Assembly: GCA_023701245.1 (NCBI GenBank)
Contig: JAMPXK010000001.1
Location: 64,023-128,022 of the forward strand
Reading direction: 5' to 3'
Length of the DNA: 64,000 bases
DNA from: Elusimicrobiales bacterium
GTDB taxonomy: Bacteria; Elusimicrobiota; Elusimicrobia; Elusimicrobiales; UBA9959
The position numbers were made by a program, and so were the translations under genes. Of this stretch, positions 38,756 through 53,688 are shown piece by piece (within the stretch, counting starts at the first letter, position 1; each line of letters begins with the position of its first letter). The notes beneath the pieces are model-generated. The model saw nothing but the letters and a program-made list of their open reading frames with translations, was not told the origin of the DNA and made no database searches.

Positions 38756-39229
38756 GTGAAAAGAATAATGCTAAGTGTGTTTTTTTGCGCGGGTTTTGCC
38801 GGCTTGACGTCGGCCGAAGACGCGGTGCCGGCCCCTAAAGCAGAAGAGGCGCAGGTGCAGCCGGCCAACCCGCCTGCCGAAAAAGGCCAGGGCGGGATGA
38901 AGAAAAAAAAGCAGGCCAAGCGCCGCAAGGAGATGCGGGAAGAACGCGGCGAGCGGCAGGAGAACCGCGGCGAACGGCGCGAAGCGCGCGGCGAGGCGCT
39001 GGAACAGAAAGGCGAGAAGCTTCAGGAGCAGGCGGATAAACTGGAAAAGAAGGCCGAAGAGGCCCGTGCCGCCGGCCATGAGAAAGCCGCCGAAAAGCTG
39101 GAGAACAGCGCGGAGCGCAAAGAGCAGCGCGGCGAAGCGCTGGAGAACAAAGGCGAGCGCATGCAGAAGCAGGGGGAGCGCATGCAGGAGCGCGGCGAGC
39201 GTAAGCAGCGCAAGACAAAGGGCAAGTAG
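38756..39229 (+). CDS. Exported highly charged repeat protein
   Basis: GTG start, signal peptide, then degenerate RGExxE/KGEx repeats. Confidence 0.65.
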   Translation: MKRIMLSVFFCAGFAGLTSAEDAVPAPKAEEAQVQPANPPAEKGQGGMKKKKQAKRRKEMREERGERQENRGERREARGEALEQKGEKLQEQADKLEKKAEEARAAGHEKAAEKLENSAERKEQRGEALENKGERMQKQGERMQERGERKQRKTKGK

Positions 39230-39401: not shown

Positions 39402-40646
39402 ATGGCCGACAATGCTAACAACAGGAAAAAAACGCTTATCATCGGCGTCCTCGCGTTCCTATTCATCGGCGGGGGCATTTTCCTGTTCTTCGTCATACAG
39501 GGCTCCAACGACCTGACGGGGGCCGGCAAGAAAAACGCTTTCACCTACGGCAACGTGGCGCGCGAAGCGGCCACCTCTTTCTTCAAATTCGTCGGGTTCG
39601 ACGACGTGGAATCGATAGCCAAGGAAGGGGACAAGGACAGGCTGCGTTTGAAAGAATACGCCGCGGCCGGCCTATTGGATTCCGCTGACGCGCCGCAGGC
39701 TCCGCAGGAAGATGTGCCGTGGGCGCCCCCGGCGGCTTCGGGCAAACCTTCCGCTCCGGCTAATATCCCCAAAATGAGCGGGGGCGGCACTTCGGGTGTG
39801 GGCGGCATGGGCGGGGGCGGCACCAGGTCTTCCGGCGGCGCTTCGCGTTTCGCTGACGGTTCGGGGGCGGGCAACACCAAGATCTCCGCCAAAGTCCAGG
39901 AGGGGGCGGACGGCGTCAAGGGGACGGGCTCGCTGGCTTCCCTGGCTAAAACTCGGGTAATGCTGGGTGACGGTCTGCGCAGCGGTTCCGCGGCCACGGC
40001 CAAGGGCAAGTGGGATTCCAGTTTCGGTGTGGGGCGCTCCGGCGGCGGCGCCGGCAGCGACCTGGCCTACGCCAAGAGCGGTCTTGTGAACCTGGACAAG
40101 ATCAAGAAAGGCGAGGTGGACAACCTTAAGACCACCGACCCCAAATCCCTTAAGACTCCCGAGGTCGGCGCTCCCAAAAAAGACGAAAAGGCCGATGAGG
40201 CCGACCCTGTGCTGAAAAAGGCCAAGGAAGCCGCCGAGGACGCTATTACCAAGAGCATGGCTTCGTCTATGGCTGGCGCCCTGGGGCAGGGGCTGACCAA
40301 TTCCACCAGCCGCGGCGGGTCCGGGGATAATCCGTCCGCTGGGGGGGTAACCGCGCCCGAGACCGGTTCCTGCCCTGTCGGCGGCGGCGGGGGCGGCGGG
40401 GTGTGCTCTGTTACCTCCGGGCACCAGATCCCTTCTGATTCCAAGGTCAATTACACTCAGGTGGGTAGCACGGCCGAGGGGAAGATTTTCGAGGTTTCTT
40501 ATGCTGGGTCCGGGCCGGGGGTTACCCCCGGTATGAAAGGCACTTCTGTCAACTACACGGACACCTGCATAGTATTGGTGAAGCCGGACGGGACCAGTAA
40601 GATAACAGGCTGGGGCGTTATCAATGAGAGCCCAGTTACCCCATAG
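39402..40646 (+). CDS. P1: Gly-rich single-TM protein of unknown function
   Basis: TM KTLIIGVLAFLFIGGGIFLFFVIQG then long low-complexity region. Confidence 0.75.
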   Translation: MADNANNRKKTLIIGVLAFLFIGGGIFLFFVIQGSNDLTGAGKKNAFTYGNVAREAATSFFKFVGFDDVESIAKEGDKDRLRLKEYAAAGLLDSADAPQAPQEDVPWAPPAASGKPSAPANIPKMSGGGTSGVGGMGGGGTRSSGGASRFADGSGAGNTKISAKVQEGADGVKGTGSLASLAKTRVMLGDGLRSGSAATAKGKWDSSFGVGRSGGGAGSDLAYAKSGLVNLDKIKKGEVDNLKTTDPKSLKTPEVGAPKKDEKADEADPVLKKAKEAAEDAITKSMASSMAGALGQGLTNSTSRGGSGDNPSAGGVTAPETGSCPVGGGGGGGVCSVTSGHQIPSDSKVNYTQVGSTAEGKIFEVSYAGSGPGVTPGMKGTSVNYTDTCIVLVKPDGTSKITGWGVINESPVTP

Positions 40647-40654
40647 CAAGGCCC

Positions 40655-40683
40655 TTGACAAGTCAAGGTTCGTCTGCTATAAC
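40655..40683 (+). promoter_or_regulatory. Promoter of P2 (40784)
   Basis: TTGACA (40655-40660), 17-bp spacer, TATAAC (40678-40683); palindrome CCTTGACaaGTCAAGG over the -35. Confidence 0.65.
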
Positions 40684-40704
40684 ATTGTTGTAAAAATAAC
40701 TTTG

Positions 40705-40740
40705 CCTTGAACGCCCCGGGTGGCTGTGTCAAGGAAAGTT
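40705..40740 (+). promoter_or_regulatory. Structured 5' leader of P2
   Basis: CCTTGA (40705-40710)/TCAAGG (40729-40734), followed by AAAGTT shared with the P5 leader. Confidence 0.55.
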
Positions 40741-40783
40741 CAGGTTCTATTTTGCGGCGTAACCAGGGAAAACAGGCGGGCAT

Positions 40784-41728
40784 ATGATAAAATTCCAGAC
40801 CAAAAAGAGCAAGACCACCCAGTACGTCATAGGCGCTGTGGTGGCCATCATCATACTCGGCCTGTGGGTTTCCCTGCCCCTGATGAACGGTTCTTCCCTG
40901 GACTCTTCCGTTTCGGCCGGTAATCCCTTCCGCTCCAAAGTCGCGGACATTTCTTCGCTCGGCAGCGATATCCCCTCCGAGGGCGGCGCCCCCGGTTCTC
41001 CCCTTAGCGGCGAAATGATAAACAATCCCGCCACCTCCGGCGAGGACATTGCCTCTTCGCTTTTCCAGTCCGGTTTGGTGGGAGAGGAACCCCTGACGGA
41101 GACCGCGGCTGCGGACTCCGCTATCGCCCCGGCCCCGCCGCCCCCGTCCTCTTCGGCCGGCGCCCCCATGCCCGCCGCCCCCGGCGGCAAACTGAGCGCG
41201 GTGGCCTCTATTACCGCAGGCAACTCCAATTCCATGACGGCTGGCGGCATACATAATAAATTCTTTGGCGCCGGCGGCCAGAAAGCCGAATTCGCGCCGT
41301 CCACCGGTCCCGATCTCAAGAAGCTCGCGGCCGCGGATACCAAGAAAACCGCCCTGATGGCCATGCTCAACAGCACCGCAGAAAAAAGCCAGCTGGCGGC
41401 CAAGACCGGCAGCATGGACGCGGCCAAGGGCGGGGCTTCGGCCGCTTTCACCAATTCCGCCAAGGCGGGGGCCTCGGACCTTAATGATAGGCTGGAGAGC
41501 CAGGCTTCTTCCTCCGGGTTGCAGCTCGGGCAGACCGCGCAGGACCTGAAGAAGAGCGATCCCAATATCAACAAGCATAAAGTTAATATTCCGGAACCCA
41601 AGCCCGTAAAGGACGATAAGAGCGATGAGGAATTCAAGAAGATGCTTGTACAGATGATATTCCAGAGCGTCATAGGCCCTATGTTCGGCGCTATGGCCAA
41701 CAGCATGTTCACTACCCCCGGCAAATAA
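40784..41728 (+). CDS. P2: low-complexity single-TM protein of unknown function
   Basis: TM TTQYVIGAVVAIIILGLWVSLPLM; C-terminal amphipathic block SDEEFKKMLVQMIFQSVIGPMFGAMANSMF. Confidence 0.75.
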   Translation: MIKFQTKKSKTTQYVIGAVVAIIILGLWVSLPLMNGSSLDSSVSAGNPFRSKVADISSLGSDIPSEGGAPGSPLSGEMINNPATSGEDIASSLFQSGLVGEEPLTETAAADSAIAPAPPPPSSSAGAPMPAAPGGKLSAVASITAGNSNSMTAGGIHNKFFGAGGQKAEFAPSTGPDLKKLAAADTKKTALMAMLNSTAEKSQLAAKTGSMDAAKGGASAAFTNSAKAGASDLNDRLESQASSSGLQLGQTAQDLKKSDPNINKHKVNIPEPKPVKDDKSDEEFKKMLVQMIFQSVIGPMFGAMANSMFTTPGK

Positions 41729-41748
41729 GGATAATTTCGGAGGATTTT

Positions 41749-43428
41749 ATGAACGACTATAACGAGAAGAAAGAGAAAAAAGGCGGTTTCTGGTCGGCCT
41801 TGTCCGGCCTGTTCCGTGGCGGTTCCGGGGCGGGCGGCGCGTCCGGTTTCGGCGGAGCTGGCGCCGGGGCGGGCGGCATAGGCGGCGCGGCGCGGGGCCT
41901 TAGCGGCCTTGCCGGGCTTTTCTCCACCAAGGCCGGTATGGTGGGCATGGTGCTGGGCGGCGCTACCATAGCGGCAGGGGTCGGCGTCATCTATAACTTC
42001 ATAGGCCCCTCCTCCAATTCGGCTTATTCTCCGGATCTTTTTCAGAATAGTTACTACGAGGAAGAGGCCTCCAAGGCCGGCAGGGAGCGCGCCATGGCCC
42101 GCGAAGGCGCTTCCGCTTCCACCCTGGACATGTTCCGCGAGCAGGCGAAAAAGGACGGCATAGGGCTTGAGGGCGATGCCTCCACTGGCCAGGCCCCTGA
42201 TCCTAACGCCGAAGTTCCCGGCGCCTCCGCCGACGCGGCCGCCCCAGAAGCTCCCGCCGGCGTTCCAGGGGATAACATGCCCAGGCTGCAGTCCGCGGCC
42301 GGGTTCGGCTCCAAAGGCGGCGGTGGCGGCGGCAACAGCTTTATCCCGCGCATGCAGGGCGGCGGCGGCATGTCCGGAGGCATAGGCAGCCAGTTCTCTT
42401 CGGTTTACCGCCCGCCGGCCAAAGCGCTGGGCAAGACTTCCGGTATGTCCGCGGCGGCGGCCCGTGTAAAGGGCTCTCCGAAGTATGCGGTGCCTAATTT
42501 CAACAAGAAGGGCGCTTTCGGTCAGGCTAAATTCGCCAAGAACATGGGCAACCAGGCCAGGTACGGCAGCGACGTCGGCGCTAAAGGCCAGGCCGGGGTT
42601 CCTTTTGATACCGCCCAGCAGGCGGGCACCGGCGATGTGGGCACCCCCGCTACCGGTTCCGGCCTGGGCGGCGCAGGCGTTTCCAACGGCGCCAACCTGC
42701 GCGGCAACGATCCCAGCCTCAATAACAACGAAGTCACGCCTCCCAAGGTGCCGGATCCTGTGGACGTTTCTCCCTGGAAGGCCTGGACCGACAGGGCCAT
42801 GTACGCCATGCTGGCGGCAACCGTCCTGATCCTTCTGACCAAGGTGCTGGCCAACTTCGCCAAGGGCGTGCCCTGGATGTATATGGCAGCCATGGTTACC
42901 GCGTATGCCGCTATGGCCGCCGCGGCCCTGGTAATAGTGTCCGGCATGATGCTGATGAGCAAGTACGGCCAGAAATGGCAGGGCGCCATGTACCTGGTGG
43001 CTGGCGCCATGCTGATGTGGCAGGCCTATCAGGCTTTGGCCGGGGTTGGTGAGGCCGCGACAAAAGCCGGGGCTAACCTGGGTTCTATGGGCAAGGCCTG
43101 TCCCGGGTATAATGCCTCCACTGCCTTCGGCAACAGTATGTCGGCTCCTGGAGCTTCAATGGAAACCATGGGGAACAGCGGCTGGACCACCGGCAGCGGG
43201 GCCGAAGCCACGATAACCCCTCCGGAAGGGGTCAATACTATCGCGGGCAGCAACGGGGCTACCGGCTATGCCGTCCCCAATGCCACCGCCGGCGGAGGGA
43301 CTATCTATTCTGGCGGACCCGGCAGCACGGCTACTACCGTGACTCCACAGGGCAATGTGCTGGCGCCTGGTGGGCAGCCTAGCGGTTTGAATTATAATTT
43401 CGGCAACAACACAATGACCAATCCGTAG
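41749..43428 (+). CDS. P3: Gly-rich protein with N-terminal TM and C-terminal multi-TM block
   Basis: SSNSAYS...TLDMFREQ; KKGAFGQAKFAK; DVSPWKAWTDRAMYAMLAATVLILL; paralogous to P4. Confidence 0.75.
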   Translation: MNDYNEKKEKKGGFWSALSGLFRGGSGAGGASGFGGAGAGAGGIGGAARGLSGLAGLFSTKAGMVGMVLGGATIAAGVGVIYNFIGPSSNSAYSPDLFQNSYYEEEASKAGRERAMAREGASASTLDMFREQAKKDGIGLEGDASTGQAPDPNAEVPGASADAAAPEAPAGVPGDNMPRLQSAAGFGSKGGGGGGNSFIPRMQGGGGMSGGIGSQFSSVYRPPAKALGKTSGMSAAAARVKGSPKYAVPNFNKKGAFGQAKFAKNMGNQARYGSDVGAKGQAGVPFDTAQQAGTGDVGTPATGSGLGGAGVSNGANLRGNDPSLNNNEVTPPKVPDPVDVSPWKAWTDRAMYAMLAATVLILLTKVLANFAKGVPWMYMAAMVTAYAAMAAAALVIVSGMMLMSKYGQKWQGAMYLVAGAMLMWQAYQALAGVGEAATKAGANLGSMGKACPGYNASTAFGNSMSAPGASMETMGNSGWTTGSGAEATITPPEGVNTIAGSNGATGYAVPNATAGGGTIYSGGPGSTATTVTPQGNVLAPGGQPSGLNYNFGNNTMTNP

Positions 43429-43544
43429 GGGACTGTCTACAATGCTTCCACGGGTTCGGTTGTGCGTACTGCGGGTGCCGGGTCGATATGATCCTGTGCG
43501 TGTGTTGTGAGTAATGTTTTAGCGAGGGTTTTGCTGGAGGCGTT

Positions 43545-45023
43545 ATGAACGACAATCTGCCTGATATAAACTTTAAGGAAAAGAAAGAGAAGAAGAAGGG
43601 CATAATAGGCTGGCTGCGCGGCAAGTTCGGCGCGGGCTCGCGCGGCGGCGCCATGGGCGAAGCCGGGCTTATGAACCCTTCCGCCATGAACGTGGGCCGG
43701 GCCATCGGGGCGGGCAAGTTCGGCGCCTCCGGCGGACTGGCCGGCCTGCTGGCCGGTAAGGCCGGGATACTGGCCACCATAGCCGCGGTGGCGGTGGCCA
43801 GCGGCGTTTACCTGGCCAACCAGGCGCCTGCGCCCTCCGGCAGCAACAGCGCTTTCAGCGGCGGCAAGGTGCAGGACAATTATGTGCCTGCCATCCTGCG
43901 CAGCCAGGCCGCCAACCAGGGGTCCTCGCTGGACATGTTCAAAGATACCAACAAGAACGCCGGCCTGGCCATGGAAGAGGACCCTTCCAAGAAGAACCAG
44001 GGCAAGCCCGGGGAAGGGGATCCCGCGGCGGCCGGTGAGGGGGAGGCGCAGCCGGAGCAGCCCGCGGCGCCCGACCAGAACAACATGGCCCAGGACATGA
44101 TGGGTAAGCTGCAGGGCGGCGATATAGGGTCCCTCTCCAGTTCCCTTGGCGGCGGTTCCAATAAGTTCTCCGCCATGGGCGGCTTCGGCAACAAGTTCAA
44201 CCAGGGCCAGGTGGGCGCCAAGACCGGCCTCAGTTCCAATATAGGCTCCGGTTTCCAGGGCCTGCCCAAGTTCGACGCCCGCAAGGGTAAGATGACGGCG
44301 ATGAAGGCCTCCTCCAAGCCCATCTTCTCCAAGAGCGGCGCCGGCAAGAAGGGGAAATTCGGCACCGGGGCTTTCGGCCAGGCCAAAGGCCTGCGCAGCA
44401 CGCAGAAATCTTATACCGGCAACCAGATAGACCCTATGGCCGGCACGCAGAACGCTGCCTGGACCGGCAGTACGCCCGAAGGCAGCACCAGCGGCGGCAC
44501 CGGTCTTAACGACGGCGGCGCCGGCATCATGTCTTCGCCTTCGCTCGACAACTCCGGCAGCGGCGGAGGCGGCGGCGGCGCAGGCGTCCCGGAAGAGCCC
44601 GCGGTGCCTGAGGCTCCGGCTCCCACCGACGTGAGCCCCTGGGCCAGCGCGGTGTCGATGGCGATGATGATGATAATGATCTCCTGCGTGCTGTCCGCCA
44701 TCGGTTCCTACCTCATATCCATAGGTTCCAAGACCGCAGCGGCCGTCTCGTTGGGTCTGTTCCTCTACTGGGCGGGCATGGCGTTGTGTATTGTCGCCGC
44801 CATGCTGGCCGCTTTCGCCATCTATCAGGCCATCACGATCATGACACAGCATGGGCAGGCCATGCTGGGTACCGTTTATCTGTTGGGCGGCGCCGCAGCC
44901 ATGGCGGCGGCCTATTTCGCCATGACAGGTACCACGCCTGGCAATCCCAGCGGTACCGCGATGGTCCTTGCCGCTGCCGGCGGCGTGCTCTCCATGATAG
45001 GGAGCATGCTTGGCGGCAAGTAG
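43545..45023 (+). CDS. P4: Gly-rich protein with N-terminal TM and C-terminal multi-TM block
   Basis: GSNSAFS...SSLDMFKDT; GTGAFGQAKGL; DVSPWASAVSMAMMMIMISCVL. Confidence 0.75.
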   Translation: MNDNLPDINFKEKKEKKKGIIGWLRGKFGAGSRGGAMGEAGLMNPSAMNVGRAIGAGKFGASGGLAGLLAGKAGILATIAAVAVASGVYLANQAPAPSGSNSAFSGGKVQDNYVPAILRSQAANQGSSLDMFKDTNKNAGLAMEEDPSKKNQGKPGEGDPAAAGEGEAQPEQPAAPDQNNMAQDMMGKLQGGDIGSLSSSLGGGSNKFSAMGGFGNKFNQGQVGAKTGLSSNIGSGFQGLPKFDARKGKMTAMKASSKPIFSKSGAGKKGKFGTGAFGQAKGLRSTQKSYTGNQIDPMAGTQNAAWTGSTPEGSTSGGTGLNDGGAGIMSSPSLDNSGSGGGGGGAGVPEEPAVPEAPAPTDVSPWASAVSMAMMMIMISCVLSAIGSYLISIGSKTAAAVSLGLFLYWAGMALCIVAAMLAAFAIYQAITIMTQHGQAMLGTVYLLGGAAAMAAAYFAMTGTTPGNPSGTAMVLAAAGGVLSMIGSMLGGK

Positions 45024-45040
45024 GCGTTTTTCCGCCTGTG

Positions 45041-45083
45041 CCCTGCCTCCCCGCGGTGTGTCTGCGGGGGGGCAGGGTTTTCT
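45041..45083 (+). terminator. Rho-independent terminator after P4
   Basis: CCCTGCCTCCCCGCGG-tgtgt-CTGCGGGGGGGCAGGG then TTTTCTTTT. Confidence 0.8.
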
Positions 45084-45110
45084 TTTGATGCTTTTTGTCC
45101 GCCACGCGAT

Positions 45111-46487
45111 ATGAAAGTAGCTTTCATACGGCCGCCTTTCCCTCCGCCGCACTGGCTTATAGGGCTGATCCGGGACCACGATTTCCCTCTCGGGATAGGG
45201 TACCTGGCTGCCGTGCTGTCGCGCGCGGGCAACGAGGTCAGGGTCTTCGACCCGGAGGCCGTCTCCCAGCCGTTGGAAAAAATGTGGGCCGAGCTCGAGA
45301 AGTTCAAACCGGACCTCGTCGGGATAACTACCGTTACGCCCAGGTTCGAGGTGGCGGTCAAGCTGGCCAGGGAAGCCAAAAGACGTCTTAAATGTCTCGT
45401 GATAATGGGGGGGCCTCATGCCACCGCCCTGCCCCGCTCCACCCTGTTGGCCGCGAGATGTCTCGACGCGGTGATCATGGGAGAGGCCGAGTCTTCGATG
45501 CTGGCCGTCGCCGCGGGATTCAACGCCGGGGGCAAGGTGGATTTTAACCGGATACCGGGTGCGGCGTTCTTCGAGAACTGGAATTACAGGGAGATCCCCC
45601 GGCCCGAGTTCATACAGGACCTGGATGCCATCCCCTATCCGCAGCGCGACTTCGTTCACCTCAGGGCCTACAACAGGAACCGCGTCATGTTCGGGGGGGT
45701 AAGGTGCGCCACTGTAATGTCCAGCCGGGGTTGCCCTGGGCGCTGCACCTTCTGCGCCAACATCTGCACCGGCAGGAAGCTGCGCCTGCGCGGGCCCGAG
45801 AATTTCGTCGGGGAGATGGAATTCCTCTCGAAGGACCACGGGGTAAAATATTTCCAGATCTACGACGACTGCTTTACCGCGGACCCGAAGCACGTGGAGG
45901 CCGTCTGCGACCTGATACTTTCCAGGGGCCTCAGGATCCGGTGGGGGGCCTTCGGCCGCGTTAACACGGTGCAGGACGAGCGGCTGCTGCGCAAGATGAA
46001 ACGTGCCGGCTGCATGCATATGCTCCTGGGGATAGAATCGGGCAACCAGCGTATCTTGAATCTGATGCGCAAGGGAACGACCCTGGAGGCGGCCGAGAAG
46101 AGCTGCACCCTGCTTCGCAAATGCGGGATATCCTATTCCAACTCCTTCATGCTTGGATGCGAAGGGGAAACGCTGGAAACGGCCAGGGACACGATAGTTT
46201 TCGCGGAAAAATTAGGCTCCGAAATGTTCAATTTCGTCATACTTATCCCGTTTCCCGGCACCGAGCTGTTCGAGAAGTACTACAAGGATTTTGACAGCCC
46301 TGACACGGACTGGGAGAATTGGTGCTCCCAGGAGGACAATAGGCCGTATCCCATGCGTCATACCTCACTGACGATGGAGCAGCTGATCTCCCTTCAGATG
46401 GAGGCGGGGCTTAGGTATACGCGCAGCCCGGTAAGGTTCATGCGGGCCATGCGTTTCGGGCTGCGGGAACTGGGACTGGCACTATGA
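45111..46487 (+). CDS. B12-binding-domain radical SAM protein
   Basis: N-terminal B12-binding-like domain; CPGRCTFC (CxxxCxxC); MHMLLGIESGNQRILNLMRKGTT. Confidence 0.9.
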   Translation: MKVAFIRPPFPPPHWLIGLIRDHDFPLGIGYLAAVLSRAGNEVRVFDPEAVSQPLEKMWAELEKFKPDLVGITTVTPRFEVAVKLAREAKRRLKCLVIMGGPHATALPRSTLLAARCLDAVIMGEAESSMLAVAAGFNAGGKVDFNRIPGAAFFENWNYREIPRPEFIQDLDAIPYPQRDFVHLRAYNRNRVMFGGVRCATVMSSRGCPGRCTFCANICTGRKLRLRGPENFVGEMEFLSKDHGVKYFQIYDDCFTADPKHVEAVCDLILSRGLRIRWGAFGRVNTVQDERLLRKMKRAGCMHMLLGIESGNQRILNLMRKGTTLEAAEKSCTLLRKCGISYSNSFMLGCEGETLETARDTIVFAEKLGSEMFNFVILIPFPGTELFEKYYKDFDSPDTDWENWCSQEDNRPYPMRHTSLTMEQLISLQMEAGLRYTRSPVRFMRAMRFGLRELGLAL

Positions 46488-46499
46488 CGCGTGTGCCCC

Positions 46500-46528
46500 T
46501 TGACATGTCAATGTTCTTATGATATAAT
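46500..46528 (+). promoter_or_regulatory. Promoter of P5 (46659)
   Basis: TTGACA (46500-46505), 17-bp spacer, TATAAT (46523-46528); palindrome TTGACATGTCAA over the -35. Confidence 0.7.
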
Positions 46529-46548
46529 ATAGATAATAATAGGCTTCG

Positions 46549-46583
46549 CCCTGAACCTTTTAAAAATCGTGTCAGGGAAAGTT
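46549..46583 (+). promoter_or_regulatory. Structured 5' leader of P5
   Basis: CCCTGA (46549-46554)/TCAGGG (46572-46577) followed by AAAGTT. Confidence 0.55.
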
Positions 46584-46658
46584 GTAGTTTTGTCTTTATA
46601 ATTTTTGGCGAAACTCGCGGTGTAGCGGTTCCTCGGCCCCGGCGGACGGGAGGAGAAT

Positions 46659-48278
46659 ATGGGCAACAAATTCATAGAGAAGCACAGGCGGAAGTCCCTG
46701 CTCGCCTCGCTATTGTTCATTTTCCGGGGCCGCGGGAAGTTCGTAGCCATCCTGCTGATGGTCACCATACTTTCCGTTCCTTTCGTGATTTCCGGGGAGA
46801 CGCTCGGCCGTATCATAGAGCTGCGCCCCGTGGCCGCGTTCCTGCGCTCCATAGGCATGAGCAGCGTGGTCTCCTCGCTCAATCCCAAGTACTCCAACGA
46901 CCTGCTCAAGGCGGCGCTGGACAAGGCGGCGGAAGACAGCGCCAATAACTCCTTCTGGAACAAGTTCCTAAAGAGCATCAACGCCACGCTGCCCCCGGCG
47001 GGCAGCGGTTCCTCCATGGCCATGATCCGCGGCGGCGGGGATATTTTCGGCCTGCCGGAGATCAAGGACCCCAAGGGCGCCAAGGCCGGTCCCGGCCAGG
47101 TTAAGGGCGTGGTCAACGAGGAGGAGCGGGCGCGCGGCGAGACGGGCGACGAGGTCAACCTGGAGTCGCTCCTGGCCGGCGGGCCCGGCGGCGCGGGCGC
47201 TGACGGCGGGCTTTACGGAGATTTGATGGGGGAGAACCTGGCCGGCCGGTTCGGCGGTTCCAGCAATTCCCCTTACATGGGCAGCAGCATGATGGGCGGC
47301 GGGCCCTCCGTGGGCGGGCGCACGTCCGGCATGTACAACAAGGTTTACAGCCAGGCAGGCAGCAAGGTGCCGCTGCCCGGCAAGCCGGCCAAGGTCAATA
47401 CCAAGACCATGGGCCGCGTGTCGGGGTTCACCTGGAAGAACGTGGGCTACAAGAACAAGAACGCCAAGATGGACGTGAAGATAGGCAACCAGCGGCCTAT
47501 GTTCCAGCTGGCGCAGACCTTCGCCATGACGGCCACGGCCTTCAAGTCCAAGAGTTCCGCCACCGAGTACCAGGCCGCCTATACCGGCGCCACTTACGAC
47601 GGCAACGACGTGAACCTGGACGTGATGGAGACCGACGCTGCTGGCACGGTGGTGCCCGACACCGCCATGACCGGGGACCTTATAGACGGGGCCGTGGGCA
47701 TGCAGGACGCCGCCAAGCTGTGTTCCGACGCGCAGGGCACCAACGGCGCCAAAATGTCGGAAGACGGCAAGATGATAGACGATATTTCCAAGACGCTGGG
47801 CAAGCCGCCCAAGTGCTGCGGCAACGTGGATTCCTGGAACGGCAAGATAGACAGGATCATTTCGTACTGTCACGACTTCAACATCAACGAGGCCCAGTTG
47901 GCGGCCGCCTGCCAGAACAAGAGCAATCCCATGGACTGCGGCGGCTACAACAGCATGAAGATCAAGAAATGCTCGAAGCTCAAATGCTTCCTGAGCATCA
48001 TCATCGCCATCCTGATGATCATGATAGGCGGCTTCTTCGCCATGCCTTTCCTGGTCGCGGCCGGCGTGGGCATGCTGGTGTCTCAGCTGGTGCCCGGTAT
48101 CTTCGGCCAGATCCTGGGCGCTCTTATAACGCTGGGAGCCGGCCTCTTCATGGCGGGAGGGTTGGCCAACTTCATTACGGCCTCCCTGAAAGTGTCCATG
48201 GAAAATGTCCTGACCACCATAATGACCATCTCCGGCAAGATAGCCGGGACGGACGGCGGCGGGGACGAGGAATCTTAA
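46659..48278 (+). CDS. P5: membrane protein with Cys-rich segment and C-terminal TM block
   Basis: N-terminal TM VAILLMVTILSVPFVIS; about 8 Cys before the C-terminal TMs. Confidence 0.75.
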   Translation: MGNKFIEKHRRKSLLASLLFIFRGRGKFVAILLMVTILSVPFVISGETLGRIIELRPVAAFLRSIGMSSVVSSLNPKYSNDLLKAALDKAAEDSANNSFWNKFLKSINATLPPAGSGSSMAMIRGGGDIFGLPEIKDPKGAKAGPGQVKGVVNEEERARGETGDEVNLESLLAGGPGGAGADGGLYGDLMGENLAGRFGGSSNSPYMGSSMMGGGPSVGGRTSGMYNKVYSQAGSKVPLPGKPAKVNTKTMGRVSGFTWKNVGYKNKNAKMDVKIGNQRPMFQLAQTFAMTATAFKSKSSATEYQAAYTGATYDGNDVNLDVMETDAAGTVVPDTAMTGDLIDGAVGMQDAAKLCSDAQGTNGAKMSEDGKMIDDISKTLGKPPKCCGNVDSWNGKIDRIISYCHDFNINEAQLAAACQNKSNPMDCGGYNSMKIKKCSKLKCFLSIIIAILMIMIGGFFAMPFLVAAGVGMLVSQLVPGIFGQILGALITLGAGLFMAGGLANFITASLKVSMENVLTTIMTISGKIAGTDGGGDEES

Positions 48279-48592
48279 GCCCGTGGTAAAGCCGTACAGG
48301 AGGAAGCAGGTGCCGGACAACATCAGTGAGGCGGCGGAGTGAAGGTTTTCAGACCTGCGGAGTTTTCCTCCGGGAGCGCCCGGTAGGCGTTCCGGCTTTG
48401 CCGGCGGGCTTTTCTATGGTCTTTTTACGTCGTGTGGCGCCGTGGGCCTAAGGGCCCAGAAGGACAAGGGTCCAATGACACTTGGCTGCGGCGCGGATAT
48501 TAGGTACATTATAATCGGAAAGGTGTAATGCCGCTTTTCAGGCTTGGTATATTAATAGGAACGTCAGTTAAATCGCGGACCCGGAGGCAGTT

Positions 48593-51500
48593 ATGAACTT
48601 CTACAACGAAGATGAGAAAAAGGACGGGGCGCCGGTATCTCCCGGGGCGTCTTTCAATAAAAAGTCCTCCTTTGGAAAAGCGCCGCTTTTCTCCAGGAAC
48701 GCAGGCGGCCTGATGGACCGCATCAAGAACCTGTCGCGCAAGGACATGGCTTTCGTGGGTATAGGGCTCAGCGTGCTGGTGATGGCGCCGGTGGCCGAGT
48801 ACATGATGTCCAAGCCTTCCAGCGACAACCTGCTGACCCCCGGTTTCGGTTCCAGGGAAGGCGGCTCCGTTTCCGGCCTTTACGAACCCGGCATAAACGC
48901 TCTCAGCCAGGGTTCCGCAGACGGTTCCGGAGAAGTGATAACCCCGCTCAGTTCCCGCGACCCCGCGTCGCTGATCCTGGGTTCGCAGCCGGCCGCGCCG
49001 GCCGCTCCTCCGCCCGCTCCGCCCGCCACGACTTTCCGCGATTCCATGAAGGACGTGGGCCGCGCGGCTTTCTCCGAGGCCTCCAAGGCTGCGCCCTCGC
49101 CTACGCCCATTCCCAAGATGCAGGCGGCGCTGCGCAACTTCGGCTCCTTCTTCAGCGGCGGCGACAGCACCCGCACTTCCGGCGGCCTGAGCGGCGGCAA
49201 GATCATAGACGACGCCAAGTCCGCCTCTTCCAAAGCGGCCAAGCGCTCCATGGTAGGTCCCGTGGCCATGCCCGGCTACAAGGGCGTGGCTTCCAATACC
49301 CCTAACAGTTCCTCCAAGGGCGCTTTCGAAAAGCTCCGCTCCGCGGCCGATAAGGCGGCCGGCAACTTCACCGGCGGGTCCGCCGTAAGCGCGCTGGACA
49401 AAGCCGCGGCCGATTCCCTTAACCTCGGTGCGGGCGGCGGCGGCATGGGCTACGGCAACGAGTCTGAAAAGACCGCCAAGACTTCCGGCAACACCAACAA
49501 GTACGACCGCAACCGCTCCGGCGAGTCGCTCGCCGAGATGATGGCCAAGCAGCGCGCGCAGAAAGCGCTGGAATGGGAGTTCTATAAGAAGTACGAGATC
49601 CCCAAGCAGCTTATCAATGCCATTCTCACCGGCATCACAGGTCCCCTTACGGAAATGGTGTCCGGCAGTATGAAGACCATTCTGGGCATGAATCCGGGGC
49701 CCGCGCCCAAGTGCTGGAACCCGGCCGAGTGTCCGGATGGTACCAGTTGCGGCCAGGCCGCGCGCGACGCCTGGGGCGCCAACTGGGCCGCCACGCATAA
49801 ATTGACCGAGCTCTGCTCCCGCGGCGGCGGGCCTGTCGTATACGGCAGCAAGGTCGGTAAAGATTCCGCTATAAGCATGGCAGAGGTCTGCGTCTGCGGT
49901 AAGGGCGGTTCTCCTACCGTCGGTGGCGGTTCCACGCCTCCCGGCGGTACTCCGCCCGCCCCGGGCCAACCTCCCGCTCCGGGCCAACCTCCCGCTCCGG
50001 GTCAGCCTCCCGCTCCCGGTCAGCCTCCCGCTCCCGGTCAGCCCCCGGCCGCCGGCAATACCACGGTCCCGGCTTCCGATTCCGCGGTCTTTTCCGCCTA
50101 TGACGACGCGTTGCGCGGCATAGTTGCCAAGACCCTGGAAATAGAAAGGGCCCTTGCCGGGGAAACCCGCAATCCCGCACAGATGACCGAGCATTTCAAG
50201 AACTTGGACAGCCGGTTCGACAGTCTTAATGCCGCCGGCAATGGCCAGTTGAGAGCCGCCTTTACCCGGCTGGGCTCCGAGGCCGCGGAGGCGGCCCAGG
50301 CTTACCACAACCTGGCCAACGCCAAGCAGGGTGAATTCCAGACCCTGGCCGGCGAGCACCGCGTCTATTCCCGGGCGGTTACCCGCATAGAGGCCGATAT
50401 CGCAGCTACCAGGCTTCAGACCAAGGTAGACGCTGCCACCGGCGCGCAGGCGGATCCGATCGCCGCCGGCAGCCGCGTTAGAGAGGTGGTTGCCGCTCAC
50501 AGAGAGTACATAGACCCTAAAGTGGCCGGCGCCCGCGGCCTGGTAGAGGCTCATGCCAAGATCGCTCCCGCGCTGGTGCAGCAGGCCGGCCAGTCCTCCG
50601 GGATCGCTAATTCCCTTCTGACCAACCACTCCGGTGTCGTAGCTTCCGCCAAGGGCATACTTTCCCAGGAAAGCCTGGCCCAGCCGGCCAAGCTCAGCCA
50701 GGCCACCGGCCGCCCCGCCGTGCAGGTGGCCGCCCCCGCGGCTCCCGCAGCTGCTCCCGCCGCCGGAGAAGCGCAGCCTGCCGCCTCCCAGCCGGACCGC
50801 CAGGCCGCCGAGCCCGCAGCCGCGGATAACGCCACTGCTCCGCTGAAAACGGTGGTGCTGACCTTGCGCGCCGCCAAGTGGGAGGGCCTGTGGCAGCCGC
50901 CTCACCCGCTTGACGCCACCGATGCCCATACGGCAGAGGCAGCCGCCTGGTCCGCCTTCGAGAACAGCCTCTCTGCGGAAACTCCCGCGACCCTCGCTCC
51001 CGCGGCTAATTTCGTGGCCGCGGCCGACCGCAACATGAAGATAAAGTCCGTGTCGGTGGATAAGGCCGGGGACCTTTCCGGCAACGTGACCAGCATGATG
51101 ACCACGGCCAGGGAACATATCTCCACAGCCAAGACTGCCATCATGCTGCGCGTCAGCGACTGCTATTTCAGCGAAGCCGGCTGCACAGGCACCACGCCCG
51201 CGCAGCCGCCGGCCCCGCCGCAACCGCCGGCCCAGCCTCCCGCCCCGGTGAGGCCGCCCGCCCCGCGTCCTACGAATCCTCCCGCCACTAACCCGGCGCC
51301 GCGTCCCACGGTGGACCAGCAGAAGCTGAACGGCTACCGCAGTGAGATCGTGGCCCGCAACCAGACCATCAGCGAGCGCAAGGCCGAACTGACCACGGCC
51401 GAGGCGCGGCTTGCCGCGGCCAACTCCAATTACGCCGACAGGAACAGCCAGTGCGGCCACATCCTCTCGGTGCACCAGACCGCTTGCATAAACAACCTGC

Positions 51501-51640
51501 GGGCCAAGGTTTCTGAGGCCACGCGCCTGCGCGACGCGGCCGTCACTAACCTGCGGACCACCAGCGGGGCCTGCGTGTCGTTCTATAATGGTCTGCCGCA
51601 GAATTACAAGCGCTACATCACTACCCGCTGCGAGCAATAA
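48593..51640 (+). CDS. P6: 1015-aa membrane-anchored protein with Pro-rich repeats and Cys-rich segment
   Basis: TM FVGIGLSVLVMAPVAEYMM; APGQPP x5; KCWNPAECPDGTSC...VCVCG; long Ala-rich helical regions. Confidence 0.75.
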   Translation: MNFYNEDEKKDGAPVSPGASFNKKSSFGKAPLFSRNAGGLMDRIKNLSRKDMAFVGIGLSVLVMAPVAEYMMSKPSSDNLLTPGFGSREGGSVSGLYEPGINALSQGSADGSGEVITPLSSRDPASLILGSQPAAPAAPPPAPPATTFRDSMKDVGRAAFSEASKAAPSPTPIPKMQAALRNFGSFFSGGDSTRTSGGLSGGKIIDDAKSASSKAAKRSMVGPVAMPGYKGVASNTPNSSSKGAFEKLRSAADKAAGNFTGGSAVSALDKAAADSLNLGAGGGGMGYGNESEKTAKTSGNTNKYDRNRSGESLAEMMAKQRAQKALEWEFYKKYEIPKQLINAILTGITGPLTEMVSGSMKTILGMNPGPAPKCWNPAECPDGTSCGQAARDAWGANWAATHKLTELCSRGGGPVVYGSKVGKDSAISMAEVCVCGKGGSPTVGGGSTPPGGTPPAPGQPPAPGQPPAPGQPPAPGQPPAPGQPPAAGNTTVPASDSAVFSAYDDALRGIVAKTLEIERALAGETRNPAQMTEHFKNLDSRFDSLNAAGNGQLRAAFTRLGSEAAEAAQAYHNLANAKQGEFQTLAGEHRVYSRAVTRIEADIAATRLQTKVDAATGAQADPIAAGSRVREVVAAHREYIDPKVAGARGLVEAHAKIAPALVQQAGQSSGIANSLLTNHSGVVASAKGILSQESLAQPAKLSQATGRPAVQVAAPAAPAAAPAAGEAQPAASQPDRQAAEPAAADNATAPLKTVVLTLRAAKWEGLWQPPHPLDATDAHTAEAAAWSAFENSLSAETPATLAPAANFVAAADRNMKIKSVSVDKAGDLSGNVTSMMTTAREHISTAKTAIMLRVSDCYFSEAGCTGTTPAQPPAPPQPPAQPPAPVRPPAPRPTNPPATNPAPRPTVDQQKLNGYRSEIVARNQTISERKAELTTAEARLAAANSNYADRNSQCGHILSVHQTACINNLRAKVSEATRLRDAAVTNLRTTSGACVSFYNGLPQNYKRYITTRCEQ
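49958..50047 (+). repeat. Five 18-bp tandem units encoding APGQPP
   Basis: gccccgggccaacctccc / gctccgggccaacctccc / gctccgggtcagcctccc / gctcccggtcagcctccc / gctcccggtcagcccccg. Confidence 0.9.
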
Positions 51641-51753: not shown

Positions 51754-52791
51754 ATGCCCAGGATGAAGAAGTCCGACTACCTTAAAGATACTGTAAAGCA
51801 CATAGAGATCTCCAAGTACGGCGTGGTGCCCCTGGTGGACGCCATGGGGGACATGGCTTTTACCGCCCGGGACCTGGCCCGCGCCGCCAGGATCTACGAC
51901 AAGATGCTTTCCGACCGGAACTGCTCGGTCATCCTGACGCTGGCCGGTTCGCTGTTCTCGGCCGGGCTCAAGAAAGTGGTGGTGGACCTGGTGCGCCGCA
52001 ACATGGTGGACGCCATAGTTTCCACCGGTGCCATCATGGTGGACCAGGACTTTTTCGAAGGCCTGGGCTTTCGGCATTACAAGGGCACGGCCCACAACAT
52101 AGACGACAACGAACTGCGCGAACTGAAAATAGACCGGATCTACGACACCTTTATAGACGAGGACGAACTGCGCGTCTGCGACCAGACCACCCGCAAGATA
52201 GCGGACTCGCTGGAGCCCCGCCCCTATTCTTCCCGGGAGTTCCTGGAAGAGATGGGCCGCTACCTCTCCAAACACGGCAAGACCAAGGATTCCGTGGTAC
52301 TGGCCGCCTACGAAAAGCGCGTCCCCATCTTCGTGCCTGCCTTCTCCGACTGCTCCGCCGGCTTCGGCATGGTGGAGCACCAGTGGAACAACCCGGCCAA
52401 GCACATGTCCATGGACTCCGCCAAGGATTTCCTCGAGCTCACCCGGCTCAAGATCGAGGCCCGCGACACCGGCCTGCTGATGATAGGCGGCGGCGTGCCC
52501 AAGAACTTCGTGCAGGACACCGTAGTGGCCGCGGATATCCTCGGCGAGGCCGCCCCTATGCACAAGTACGCCGTCCAGGTGACGGTGGCCGACGTGCGCG
52601 ACGGCGCCCTGTCCTCCTCCACGCTCAAAGAGGCCAGTTCCTGGGGCAAGGTGGAGACCGTCCACGAGCAGATGGTGTATTCGGAAGCCACCCTGGCCTT
52701 CCCGCTTATCGCCGGCTACGCATACCACAAGAAGTCCTGGAAGAACCGCAAGGCCCGCAACTATTCTGATTTCCTTAACAAGGCTGCCTGA
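51754..52791 (+). CDS. Deoxyhypusine synthase-family protein
   Basis: LTLAGSLFSAGLKKVVVDLVRRNMVDAIVSTGA; SSWGK retaining the DHS catalytic-lysine context. Confidence 0.9.
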   Translation: MPRMKKSDYLKDTVKHIEISKYGVVPLVDAMGDMAFTARDLARAARIYDKMLSDRNCSVILTLAGSLFSAGLKKVVVDLVRRNMVDAIVSTGAIMVDQDFFEGLGFRHYKGTAHNIDDNELRELKIDRIYDTFIDEDELRVCDQTTRKIADSLEPRPYSSREFLEEMGRYLSKHGKTKDSVVLAAYEKRVPIFVPAFSDCSAGFGMVEHQWNNPAKHMSMDSAKDFLELTRLKIEARDTGLLMIGGGVPKNFVQDTVVAADILGEAAPMHKYAVQVTVADVRDGALSSSTLKEASSWGKVETVHEQMVYSEATLAFPLIAGYAYHKKSWKNRKARNYSDFLNKAA

Positions 52792-52824: not shown

Positions 52825-53688
52825 ATGAAAAAACTGCTGGTTTCTCTTACTCTGATAGCGGGCCTGGGCGCCAACGCCTCGGCCCTGTACTTCGACGGCG
52901 GCCTGACCGGCACTACCGGCCCGGACTACAGCGGCTACAAGCTCAACCTCCGCGTCGGCGAGGGAGACTTCGCCCTGGAGCCTTCCATTACCTCCTACAA
53001 GTACGATACCGCGGCCTATGACAACAAGACCTTCCGTACCTACGGCCTGCGCGGCGCGTGGGAGCAGGAAGCTTATACCGTGGGCGCCGAAGCCGGCACC
53101 ACTCCCGAAGTGAACGGCTACAAGAACGTGTACGCCGGCGGCGACGTCACCTTCTCGCTGACCCCGACCTCCGGCGGCAAGTCCCGCCTGGCCGGCCCCG
53201 GTTCCCGCTCCGTCGCCGGCGGCGGCAAAGGCGTGACCCGCGTGGACGTGGGCGCCGCCCTCAAGCATACCGCCCATACCCAGAAGGTGCTGACCGTGGA
53301 GAACGAGACCAGCCAGACCGAGGCCACCCTCTTCGCGGGCGCCAAGGTGCTGATGCTCAACCTCTCCGCCTCCTACACCCGCTACGCCTACGGCGACGAG
53401 GACGCGACGCCCCAGGGCTTCGTGCCCGGCCTCAACTTCGCCCTGGCCGCCAAGCCCAGGTCCAGCGTGAGCGCCCGCGTGGACATCCCGGCCACCATCC
53501 CCATGGTGACGCCTTTCGCCGGCTACACCACCACCAAGTACAAGGGCGGCGTGAAGGACAGCTCGGCCGTCACGCTGGGCGGCTACGTGGACCTCAGCAT
53601 GCTGGTGGTCAACGTGGCTTACCAGATCTTCGACCAGGGTTCCGCCAACGACAGCTTCGTTTCCATCGGCGCCGGCCTGAAGTTCTAA
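52825..53688 (+). CDS. Exported outer-membrane beta-barrel-like protein
   Basis: Signal peptide MKKLLVSLTLIAGLGANASA; alternating strands; terminal aromatic (GAGLKF). Confidence 0.65.
   Translation: MKKLLVSLTLIAGLGANASALYFDGGLTGTTGPDYSGYKLNLRVGEGDFALEPSITSYKYDTAAYDNKTFRTYGLRGAWEQEAYTVGAEAGTTPEVNGYKNVYAGGDVTFSLTPTSGGKSRLAGPGSRSVAGGGKGVTRVDVGAALKHTAHTQKVLTVENETSQTEATLFAGAKVLMLNLSASYTRYAYGDEDATPQGFVPGLNFALAAKPRSSVSARVDIPATIPMVTPFAGYTTTKYKGGVKDSSAVTLGGYVDLSMLVVNVAYQIFDQGSANDSFVSIGAGLKF

What the first reader, a model, noticed from the sequence alone, without database searches (positions are those of the whole stretch)
39402..51640. Candidate undescribed envelope-associated system: six large low-complexity membrane proteins plus a B12-radical SAM enzyme
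P1, P2, P3, P4, P5 and P6 share one architecture: a short charged N-terminus, one TM, then a long Gly/Ala/Ser/Pro-rich extracytoplasmic stretch. I recognise no known family in any of them. They fall into two groups. P3, P4 and P5 end in a C-terminal multi-TM block; P3 and P4 share SNSA[YF]S, LDMF[RK], FGQAK and DVSPW. P1, P2 and P6 carry a distal amphipathic block (P2 FKKMLVQMIFQSVIGPMFGAMANSM; P6 FYKKYEIPKQLINAILTGITGPLTEMVSGSM). Serial paralogy, collinearity and a shared leader/promoter suggest a co-assembling apparatus. Envelope location and joint assembly are inference.
Basis: partly seen in the sequence, partly recalled or inferred. Interest (0 to 1): 0.87.

Follow-up and report, generated by a model that had tools for sequence, protein, structure and literature searches.

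The report
Tad-pilus partner module of Elusimicrobia
Six large, undescribed cell-envelope proteins encoded side by side belong to a gene module kept across a whole bacterial class (Elusimicrobia), where it often sits directly behind the genes for a Tad-type pilus, so it is most likely an unknown part of that pilus machine.

Summary
The six genes are real, conserved and unmatched by any family searched (Pfam, NCBIfam, PHROGs). P1-P6 keep their order in almost every relative of the window's genus. Profile searches find the module across the class Elusimicrobia, including a genome with the length of Elusimicrobium minutum, and not convincingly outside it. In several other families the module stands directly downstream, on the same strand, of a Tad/Flp pilus locus: core, TadG-like, TadE-like, FtsH-like, P2, P3, P4, P5, P6. 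In the window's own family the module has moved away, but the Tad locus keeps a P1 paralogue. I read it as an undescribed accessory module of the Elusimicrobia Tad pilus; assembly and function remain inferred. The B12-radical SAM gene is not core (5 of 28 genomes).

The parts
39402..40646 (+). P1, 414 aa, one predicted TM at 13-31 then an extracytoplasmic arm; paralogue of P0, the protein kept in the Tad locus of this family
   Evidence: (P0-P1 E 5e-8, collinear)
40655..40683 (+). Promoter of P2: palindrome TTGACAAGTCAA covers the -35; -10 TATAAC
40698..40740 (+). Structured RNA leader hairpin (model R1) of P2
   Evidence: (covariation)
40784..41728 (+). P2, 314 aa, one predicted TM at 15-33 then an arm with invariant motifs (around NPATSG)
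   Evidence: f15 homologue E 3e-13
41749..43428 (+). P3, 559 aa, TM at 63-81, arm, C-terminal TM block
   Evidence: P3-P4 E 6e-42; f15 homologue E 9e-25
43545..45023 (+). P4, 492 aa, TM at 66-84, arm, C-terminal TM block; paralogue of P3
45111..46487 (+). B12-binding radical SAM enzyme (BchE/HpnJ-like): optional cassette, not core
46500..46528 (+). Promoter of P5: TTGACA-17-TATAAT, the -35 inside palindrome TTGACATGTCAA; second copy of the element, only in rSAM genomes
46542..46583 (+). Second copy of the RNA leader hairpin, before P5
46659..48278 (+). P5, 539 aa, N-terminal TM, disordered arm, cysteine-rich helical region, C-terminal TMs
48593..51640 (+). P6, 1015 aa, TM at 54-72, conserved arm 76-340, variable distal helical bundle about 494-866
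52825..53688 (+). Predicted outer-membrane beta-barrel-like protein (by eye); conserved neighbour of the block in this family, membership in the module not shown

Best explanation
P1-P6 are the accessory envelope module of the Tad (type IVc, Flp) pilus of the class Elusimicrobia, moved away from the Tad locus in the window's family. Shown: the families, their order, their place directly behind TadG-like/TadE-like genes in several families of the class, a P1 paralogue left in the Tad locus of the window's genome, and a common leader that puts P2-P4 and, where the rSAM gene intervenes, P5 behind the same control element. Inferred: the proteins sit in the inner membrane by their N-terminal TM; their flexible, motif-bearing arms reach through the periplasm and bind one another and the Tad platform, alignment complex or minor pilins; P3-P5 add membrane anchors; the fast-changing helical rod of P6 faces outwards and gives contact or adhesion specificity; the FtsH-like protease linked to the module controls its quality.
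For: Synteny within the family: P1-P6 in one order between the MurC-like/FprA genes and OMP-DnaX-RecR in nearly all loci. Class-wide profile hits: P5 in 84 and P6 in 111 of 342 genomes of the phylum, all but one weak P6 hit inside the class; gut genomes 12/12 with a gut P6 profile, including G045. Position behind Tad: in L217, L218, L215, L216, L200+L169 and L190+L176 the order is TadG, TadE2, (FtsH), P2, P3, P4, (P5), P6, with single genes missing or undetected in some; TadG lies upstream of P6 on the same contig and strand, within about 10-27 kb, in 16 non-f1 genomes (coordinates); in gut G037, G038, G053, G044, G046 and G047 P2/P3/P5/P6-like genes follow TadG-TadE2 (homology). Tad core identified by Pfam in the window's own genome: Flp1_like, TadE, RcpC, secretin, ParA+T2SSE, T2SSF. 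P0 behind FtsH-like in the own Tad locus matches P1, E 5e-8. Of about 109 class genomes with P6 by profile A6, all but G144 show the TadG-like or CpaB marker.
Against: In the window's family, in G049 and in the E. minutum-size genome the module is away from the Tad locus, so proximity is not essential. Gut homology for single genes is weak (E 8e-3 to 3e-6) and rests on order as well. The RNA leader R1 is not shared with the Tad locus: upstream of P0 there is the same -10 but another hairpin. No interaction or expression data; the AF2 models are mostly disordered. Many Tad-bearing class genomes score no P6 with profile A6, in part for lack of sensitivity.
Confidence: 0.66

Rival explanations
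1. A stand-alone envelope scaffold or adhesion apparatus that merely happens to lie next to the Tad locus.
For: In f1, G049 and E. minutum the genes live apart from Tad, and each P family has its own conserved arm.
Against: Repeated contiguity with TadG/TadE2 across f2, f9/f12, f14 and f15, and a P1 paralogue left in the f1 Tad locus; P6 nearly never occurs without Tad markers.
Confidence: 0.17
2. The P proteins are extra minor pilins that form a Tad pilus tip, like KilL/M/N of Myxococcus.
For: They lie directly behind the minor-pilin-like genes TadG-like and TadE2; P6 has a variable distal domain, as a tip would. Kil tips are described in PMC12075869.
Against: No class III prepilin signal or TadE match in P1-P6 although Flp and TadE of the same genome match; the first TM begins 54-66 residues in for P3, P4 and P6; C-terminal TMs in P3-P5; no pilin fold in the P5 and P6 models.
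Confidence: 0.07
3. The P proteins are cargo or effectors exported by the Tad machine.
For: Large, fast-changing C-terminal ends of P6; in f14/f15 two very large proteins with apparent signal peptides (c2, c3) follow P6.
Against: Predicted N-terminal TM anchors and extra TMs; strongly conserved arms.
Confidence: 0.07

Closest known systems
Tad / Flp (type IVc) pilus
   Same: Full core in the same genome (Flp, TadE, RcpC, secretin, TadZ-TadA fusion, TadB/C); the P block is adjacent to it in other families. Tad systems in Elusimicrobia were already noted (PMC6668835).
   Different: No P protein matches a known Tad component; the accessory genes that paper adds to its Tad model (tadD, rcpB, rcpC) do not cover such a block.
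Kil system of Myxococcus xanthus (Tad-like, with minor-pilin tips and a needleless T3SS)
   Same: A Tad-type machine extended by additional genes; Flp-like and TadE/G-like minor-pilin genes close together (L232; L210, L211).
   Different: P proteins lack pilin signals; no T3SS genes were looked for or noticed near the block; predation is not indicated.
BchE/HpnJ-type B12-radical SAM enzymes (for the rSAM gene only)
   Same: B12-binding plus radical SAM domains.
   Different: Below every equivalog cut-off; optional in this locus.

Membership tests
Tad/Flp pilus system (for the locus) | TadA-type ATPase, TadB/C, RcpC, secretin, Flp pilin and TadE in the genome | tested here: met
   on L202 (own genome)
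Tad/Flp pilus system (for the locus) | P block encoded with the Tad locus | tested here: met
   met in f2 (some genera), f9/f12, f14 and f15; not met in the window's own family, where it is split
Tad/Flp pilus system (for the locus) | Prepilin peptidase TadV | not tested
   not searched
Known Tad component families (for P1-P6) | Match to a curated Tad family | tested here: not met
   no Tad family at E<=1
Type IV pilins / pseudopilins (for P1-P6) | Class III / TadE N-terminal signal | tested here: not met
   no PF04021/PF07811 hit; positive controls hit; N-termini
Type IV pilins / pseudopilins (for P1-P6) | Pilin fold | tested here: inconclusive
   only P5 and P6 modelled; confident parts all-helical, no PDB match at E<0.1
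Accessory Tad module (proposed) | Physical contact with Tad parts or need for pilus function | not testable with these tools
   no multimer prediction or experiment available
B12-radical SAM as part of the system | Co-conservation with P1-P6 | tested here: not met
   5 of 28 genomes

The most novel reading that the evidence does not exclude
The module is a previously unknown periplasm-spanning sub-machine, built of paralogous arm proteins, that converts the Elusimicrobia Tad pilus into a contact-dependent secretion or attachment device whose target is set by the fast-changing P6 rod (and c2/c3 in f14/f15), and it is governed by an RNA leader that senses a signal not yet known.
Probability: 0.15. 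Interest if true: 0.85.

Novelty: new variant of a known kind. Interest (0 to 1): 0.63.

Why it matters
Elusimicrobia are widespread, mostly uncultured bacteria about whose surfaces little is known. A class-wide module of six or more large envelope proteins tied to the Tad pilus would mean that the Tad machine of this class has a major part that, as far as I could find, no model of Tad pili contains. It is testable, since the complete gut genome examined here (matching E. minutum Pei191 in length) carries P5 and P6. The covarying RNA leader is a second, separate lead: a candidate cis-regulatory RNA not in Rfam.

Tried and rejected
Pfam, NCBIfam and PHROGs searches with P1-P6, and PDB sequence searches with the P4 and P6 profiles: nothing beyond generic coiled-coil matches for the P6 tail. 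Foldseek with the AF2 models of P5 and P6: no match below E 0.1. A known riboswitch identity for the leader: no Rfam hit. The leader as a regulon-wide signal: only two copies in the own genome and no true copy in the Tad locus; the weak R1 hits upstream of P0 (E 0.17, 0.53) lean on the shared -10, the hairpin there is another one. OmpA-like ending of gut P6: one hit below the curated cut-off, not used. rSAM as a maturase of the system: rejected as core by its scattered presence.

Full report
What is there. Simple hydropathy gives each a charged N-tail, a first TM and a long stretch rich in G/A/S/P/T/N/Q; P3, P4 and P5 carry further hydrophobic segments near the C-end. None matches Pfam, NCBIfam or PHROGs. 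In families of 20-24 homologues the 'low-complexity' stretch is well conserved (mean 0.51-0.77) and the C-terminal parts of P2-P6 are the variable ones (0.24-0.49). It carries near-invariant short motifs, such as NPATSG in P2, SS/ST-LDMF in P3/P4, and GSGEVITPLSSRDP in P6.

Paralogy. Profile-profile comparison with column-shuffled controls (scores about 11-25): P3-P4 E 6e-42; P2-P3 4e-6; P2-P4 2e-4; P4-P5 3e-4; P1-P6 3e-4; P1-P2 1e-3; P1-P3 and P1-P5 are borderline and the other pairs are not clearly above the controls.

Conservation in the family. Among 61 close genomes, P4 and P5 relatives are found in 31 and 33; loci fetched from about 30 of them show one gene order: MurC-like, FprA, P1, P2, P3, P4, [rSAM], P5, P6, [DHS], OMP, DnaX, RecR. 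The rSAM gene is present in 5 genomes and DHS in some; neither is core. Named relatives are 'Elusimicrobia' MAGs, several from groundwater.

Conservation in the class. With profiles, P5 is found in 84 and P6 in 111 of 342 genomes of the phylum, all but one weak P6 match inside the class. Most small gut genomes looked negative with these profiles, but a gut P6 profile finds P6 in 12 of 12 tested. G045, one contig of 1,643,562 bases, which I recall as the length of Elusimicrobium minutum Pei191 (from memory, not checked), has P5 at C1:772715-774064 and P6 at C1:646294-650355, apart from each other.

Link to the Tad pilus. In f14 and f15, and (without the FtsH-like gene) in f2 genus g18, the block is preceded on the same strand by a TadG-like gene, a TadE-like gene and an FtsH-like AAA/M41 protease; in f15 and g18 a Tad core lies further upstream on the same contig: TadE, CpaB/RcpC, secretin, a ParA-T2SSE (TadZ-TadA) fusion, and TadB/C. 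Pfam confirms these identities, with the Flp pilin, on the window's own genome. The TadG-like label rests on position and an N-terminal look only; Pfam gives it no family. TadG-like lies upstream of P6 on the same contig and strand, about 10-27 kb away, in G125, G184, G186, G189, G190, G192, G195, G200, G203, G204, G212, G214, G218, G219, G230 and G233 (coordinates). In many other draft genomes the two lie on different contigs, which cannot be judged. In gut genomes G037, G038, G053, G044, G046 and G047 a row of genes directly behind TadG-TadE2 matches P2, P3, P5 and P6 in that order, individually weakly to moderately (E 8e-3 to 3e-6), jointly convincing. In the window's family the Tad locus is elsewhere (own genome: contigs C14 and C21), yet behind TadG-like and FtsH-like genes it keeps a protein, here P0, that matches P1 collinearly with E 5e-8. 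The simplest history is one Tad locus with a P module, later split in f1, moved as a block in G049 and scattered in G045.

Regulation. Upstream of P2 lies TTGACAAGTCAA over the -35, a TATAAC -10, and a hairpin AACUUUG-CCYUGAAC-(variable stem)-UGUGUCARGGAAAGUU. On 28 sequences the drawn structure pairs in 94% of cells against at most 59% when slid; 31 cells changed on both sides against 9.2 in shuffles (0 of 500 as high), and A-U to G-U changes point to RNA. Two of the five measures (pairs with a change on both sides, further pair types) do not exceed the shuffles, and the structure was drawn from these same sequences. Rfam knows nothing like it. A covariance model finds it in 22 of 41 genomes, before P2 wherever inspected, and more weakly before P2 of another genus (L185). 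A second copy stands before P5 in all 5 genomes with the rSAM gene and in none of 23 without (Fisher 1e-5); the 5 are scattered on a P2/P4/P5 tree. A terminator-like stem lies between P4 and rSAM, so the second leader probably restores joint expression of P5-P6. The Fisher value ignores relatedness; the scatter on the tree is the better argument.

Structure. AF2 gives mostly disorder. P5 has a helical C-terminal part (335-500; mean pLDDT 51.8 overall); P6 has a confident long helical bundle at about 494-866 (mean 57.1 overall), a region poorly conserved in sequence (0.30-0.34). No solved structure resembles either at a useful E-value.

Function. Shown: conservation, order, Tad linkage, shared leader. 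Inferred: inner-membrane anchoring, arms across the periplasm, assembly with the Tad machine, an outward role for the P6 rod, quality control by the FtsH-like protease. I give 0.66 to the Tad-module reading, most of it for the association and less for the mechanism.

Known or new. Tad systems in Elusimicrobia are on record (PMC6668835). Extended Tad machines exist, such as Kil of Myxococcus (PMC12075869). I found no paper on this module in the library searched; most subscription papers are not held. Hence 'new variant of a known kind'.

Noticed in passing
window 40655-40740 and 46500-46583: Palindromic promoter plus covarying RNA hairpin leader, a candidate cis-regulatory RNA without an Rfam family; ligand or binding protein unknown.
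   Followed up: partly
window 45024-46658: Terminator-like stem, B12-radical SAM gene and second leader behave as one cassette, present in 5 scattered genomes of the genus and absent with its leader in 23 others.
   Followed up: partly
L232:10291-15469 (own genome, contig C21): Second Flp-like pilin gene, TadG-like, FtsH-like AAA/M41 protease and the P1 paralogue P0: remainder of the Tad locus in the window's genome.
   Followed up: partly
L210, L211, L232, L233 upstream of P0: Another conserved leader hairpin (AAGGTC...AGACCT) with the same extended -10 CTGCTATAACAT; not modelled.
   Followed up: no
L166:9720-13064 (G045): Orphan P5 of the E. minutum-size genome lies beside genes that look like a phage portal protein and a prohead protease, on the other strand.
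   Followed up: no
L171:13095-20000, L174:1-5983, L177:3-6144: In f14/f15 two very large proteins with apparent signal peptides (c2, about 870-1200 aa; c3, over 1100 aa) follow P6; no family.
   Followed up: partly
L174:17773-19065 (G195): Ankyrin-repeat plus caspase-domain protein inside the P block of one genome.
   Followed up: no
window 51754-52791: Deoxyhypusine synthase family protein in a bacterium, variably present between P6 and OMP in this family.
   Followed up: no
window 38756-39229: Small secreted-looking protein of E/K/R/Q-rich repeats directly before P1, present in some relatives only.
   Followed up: no
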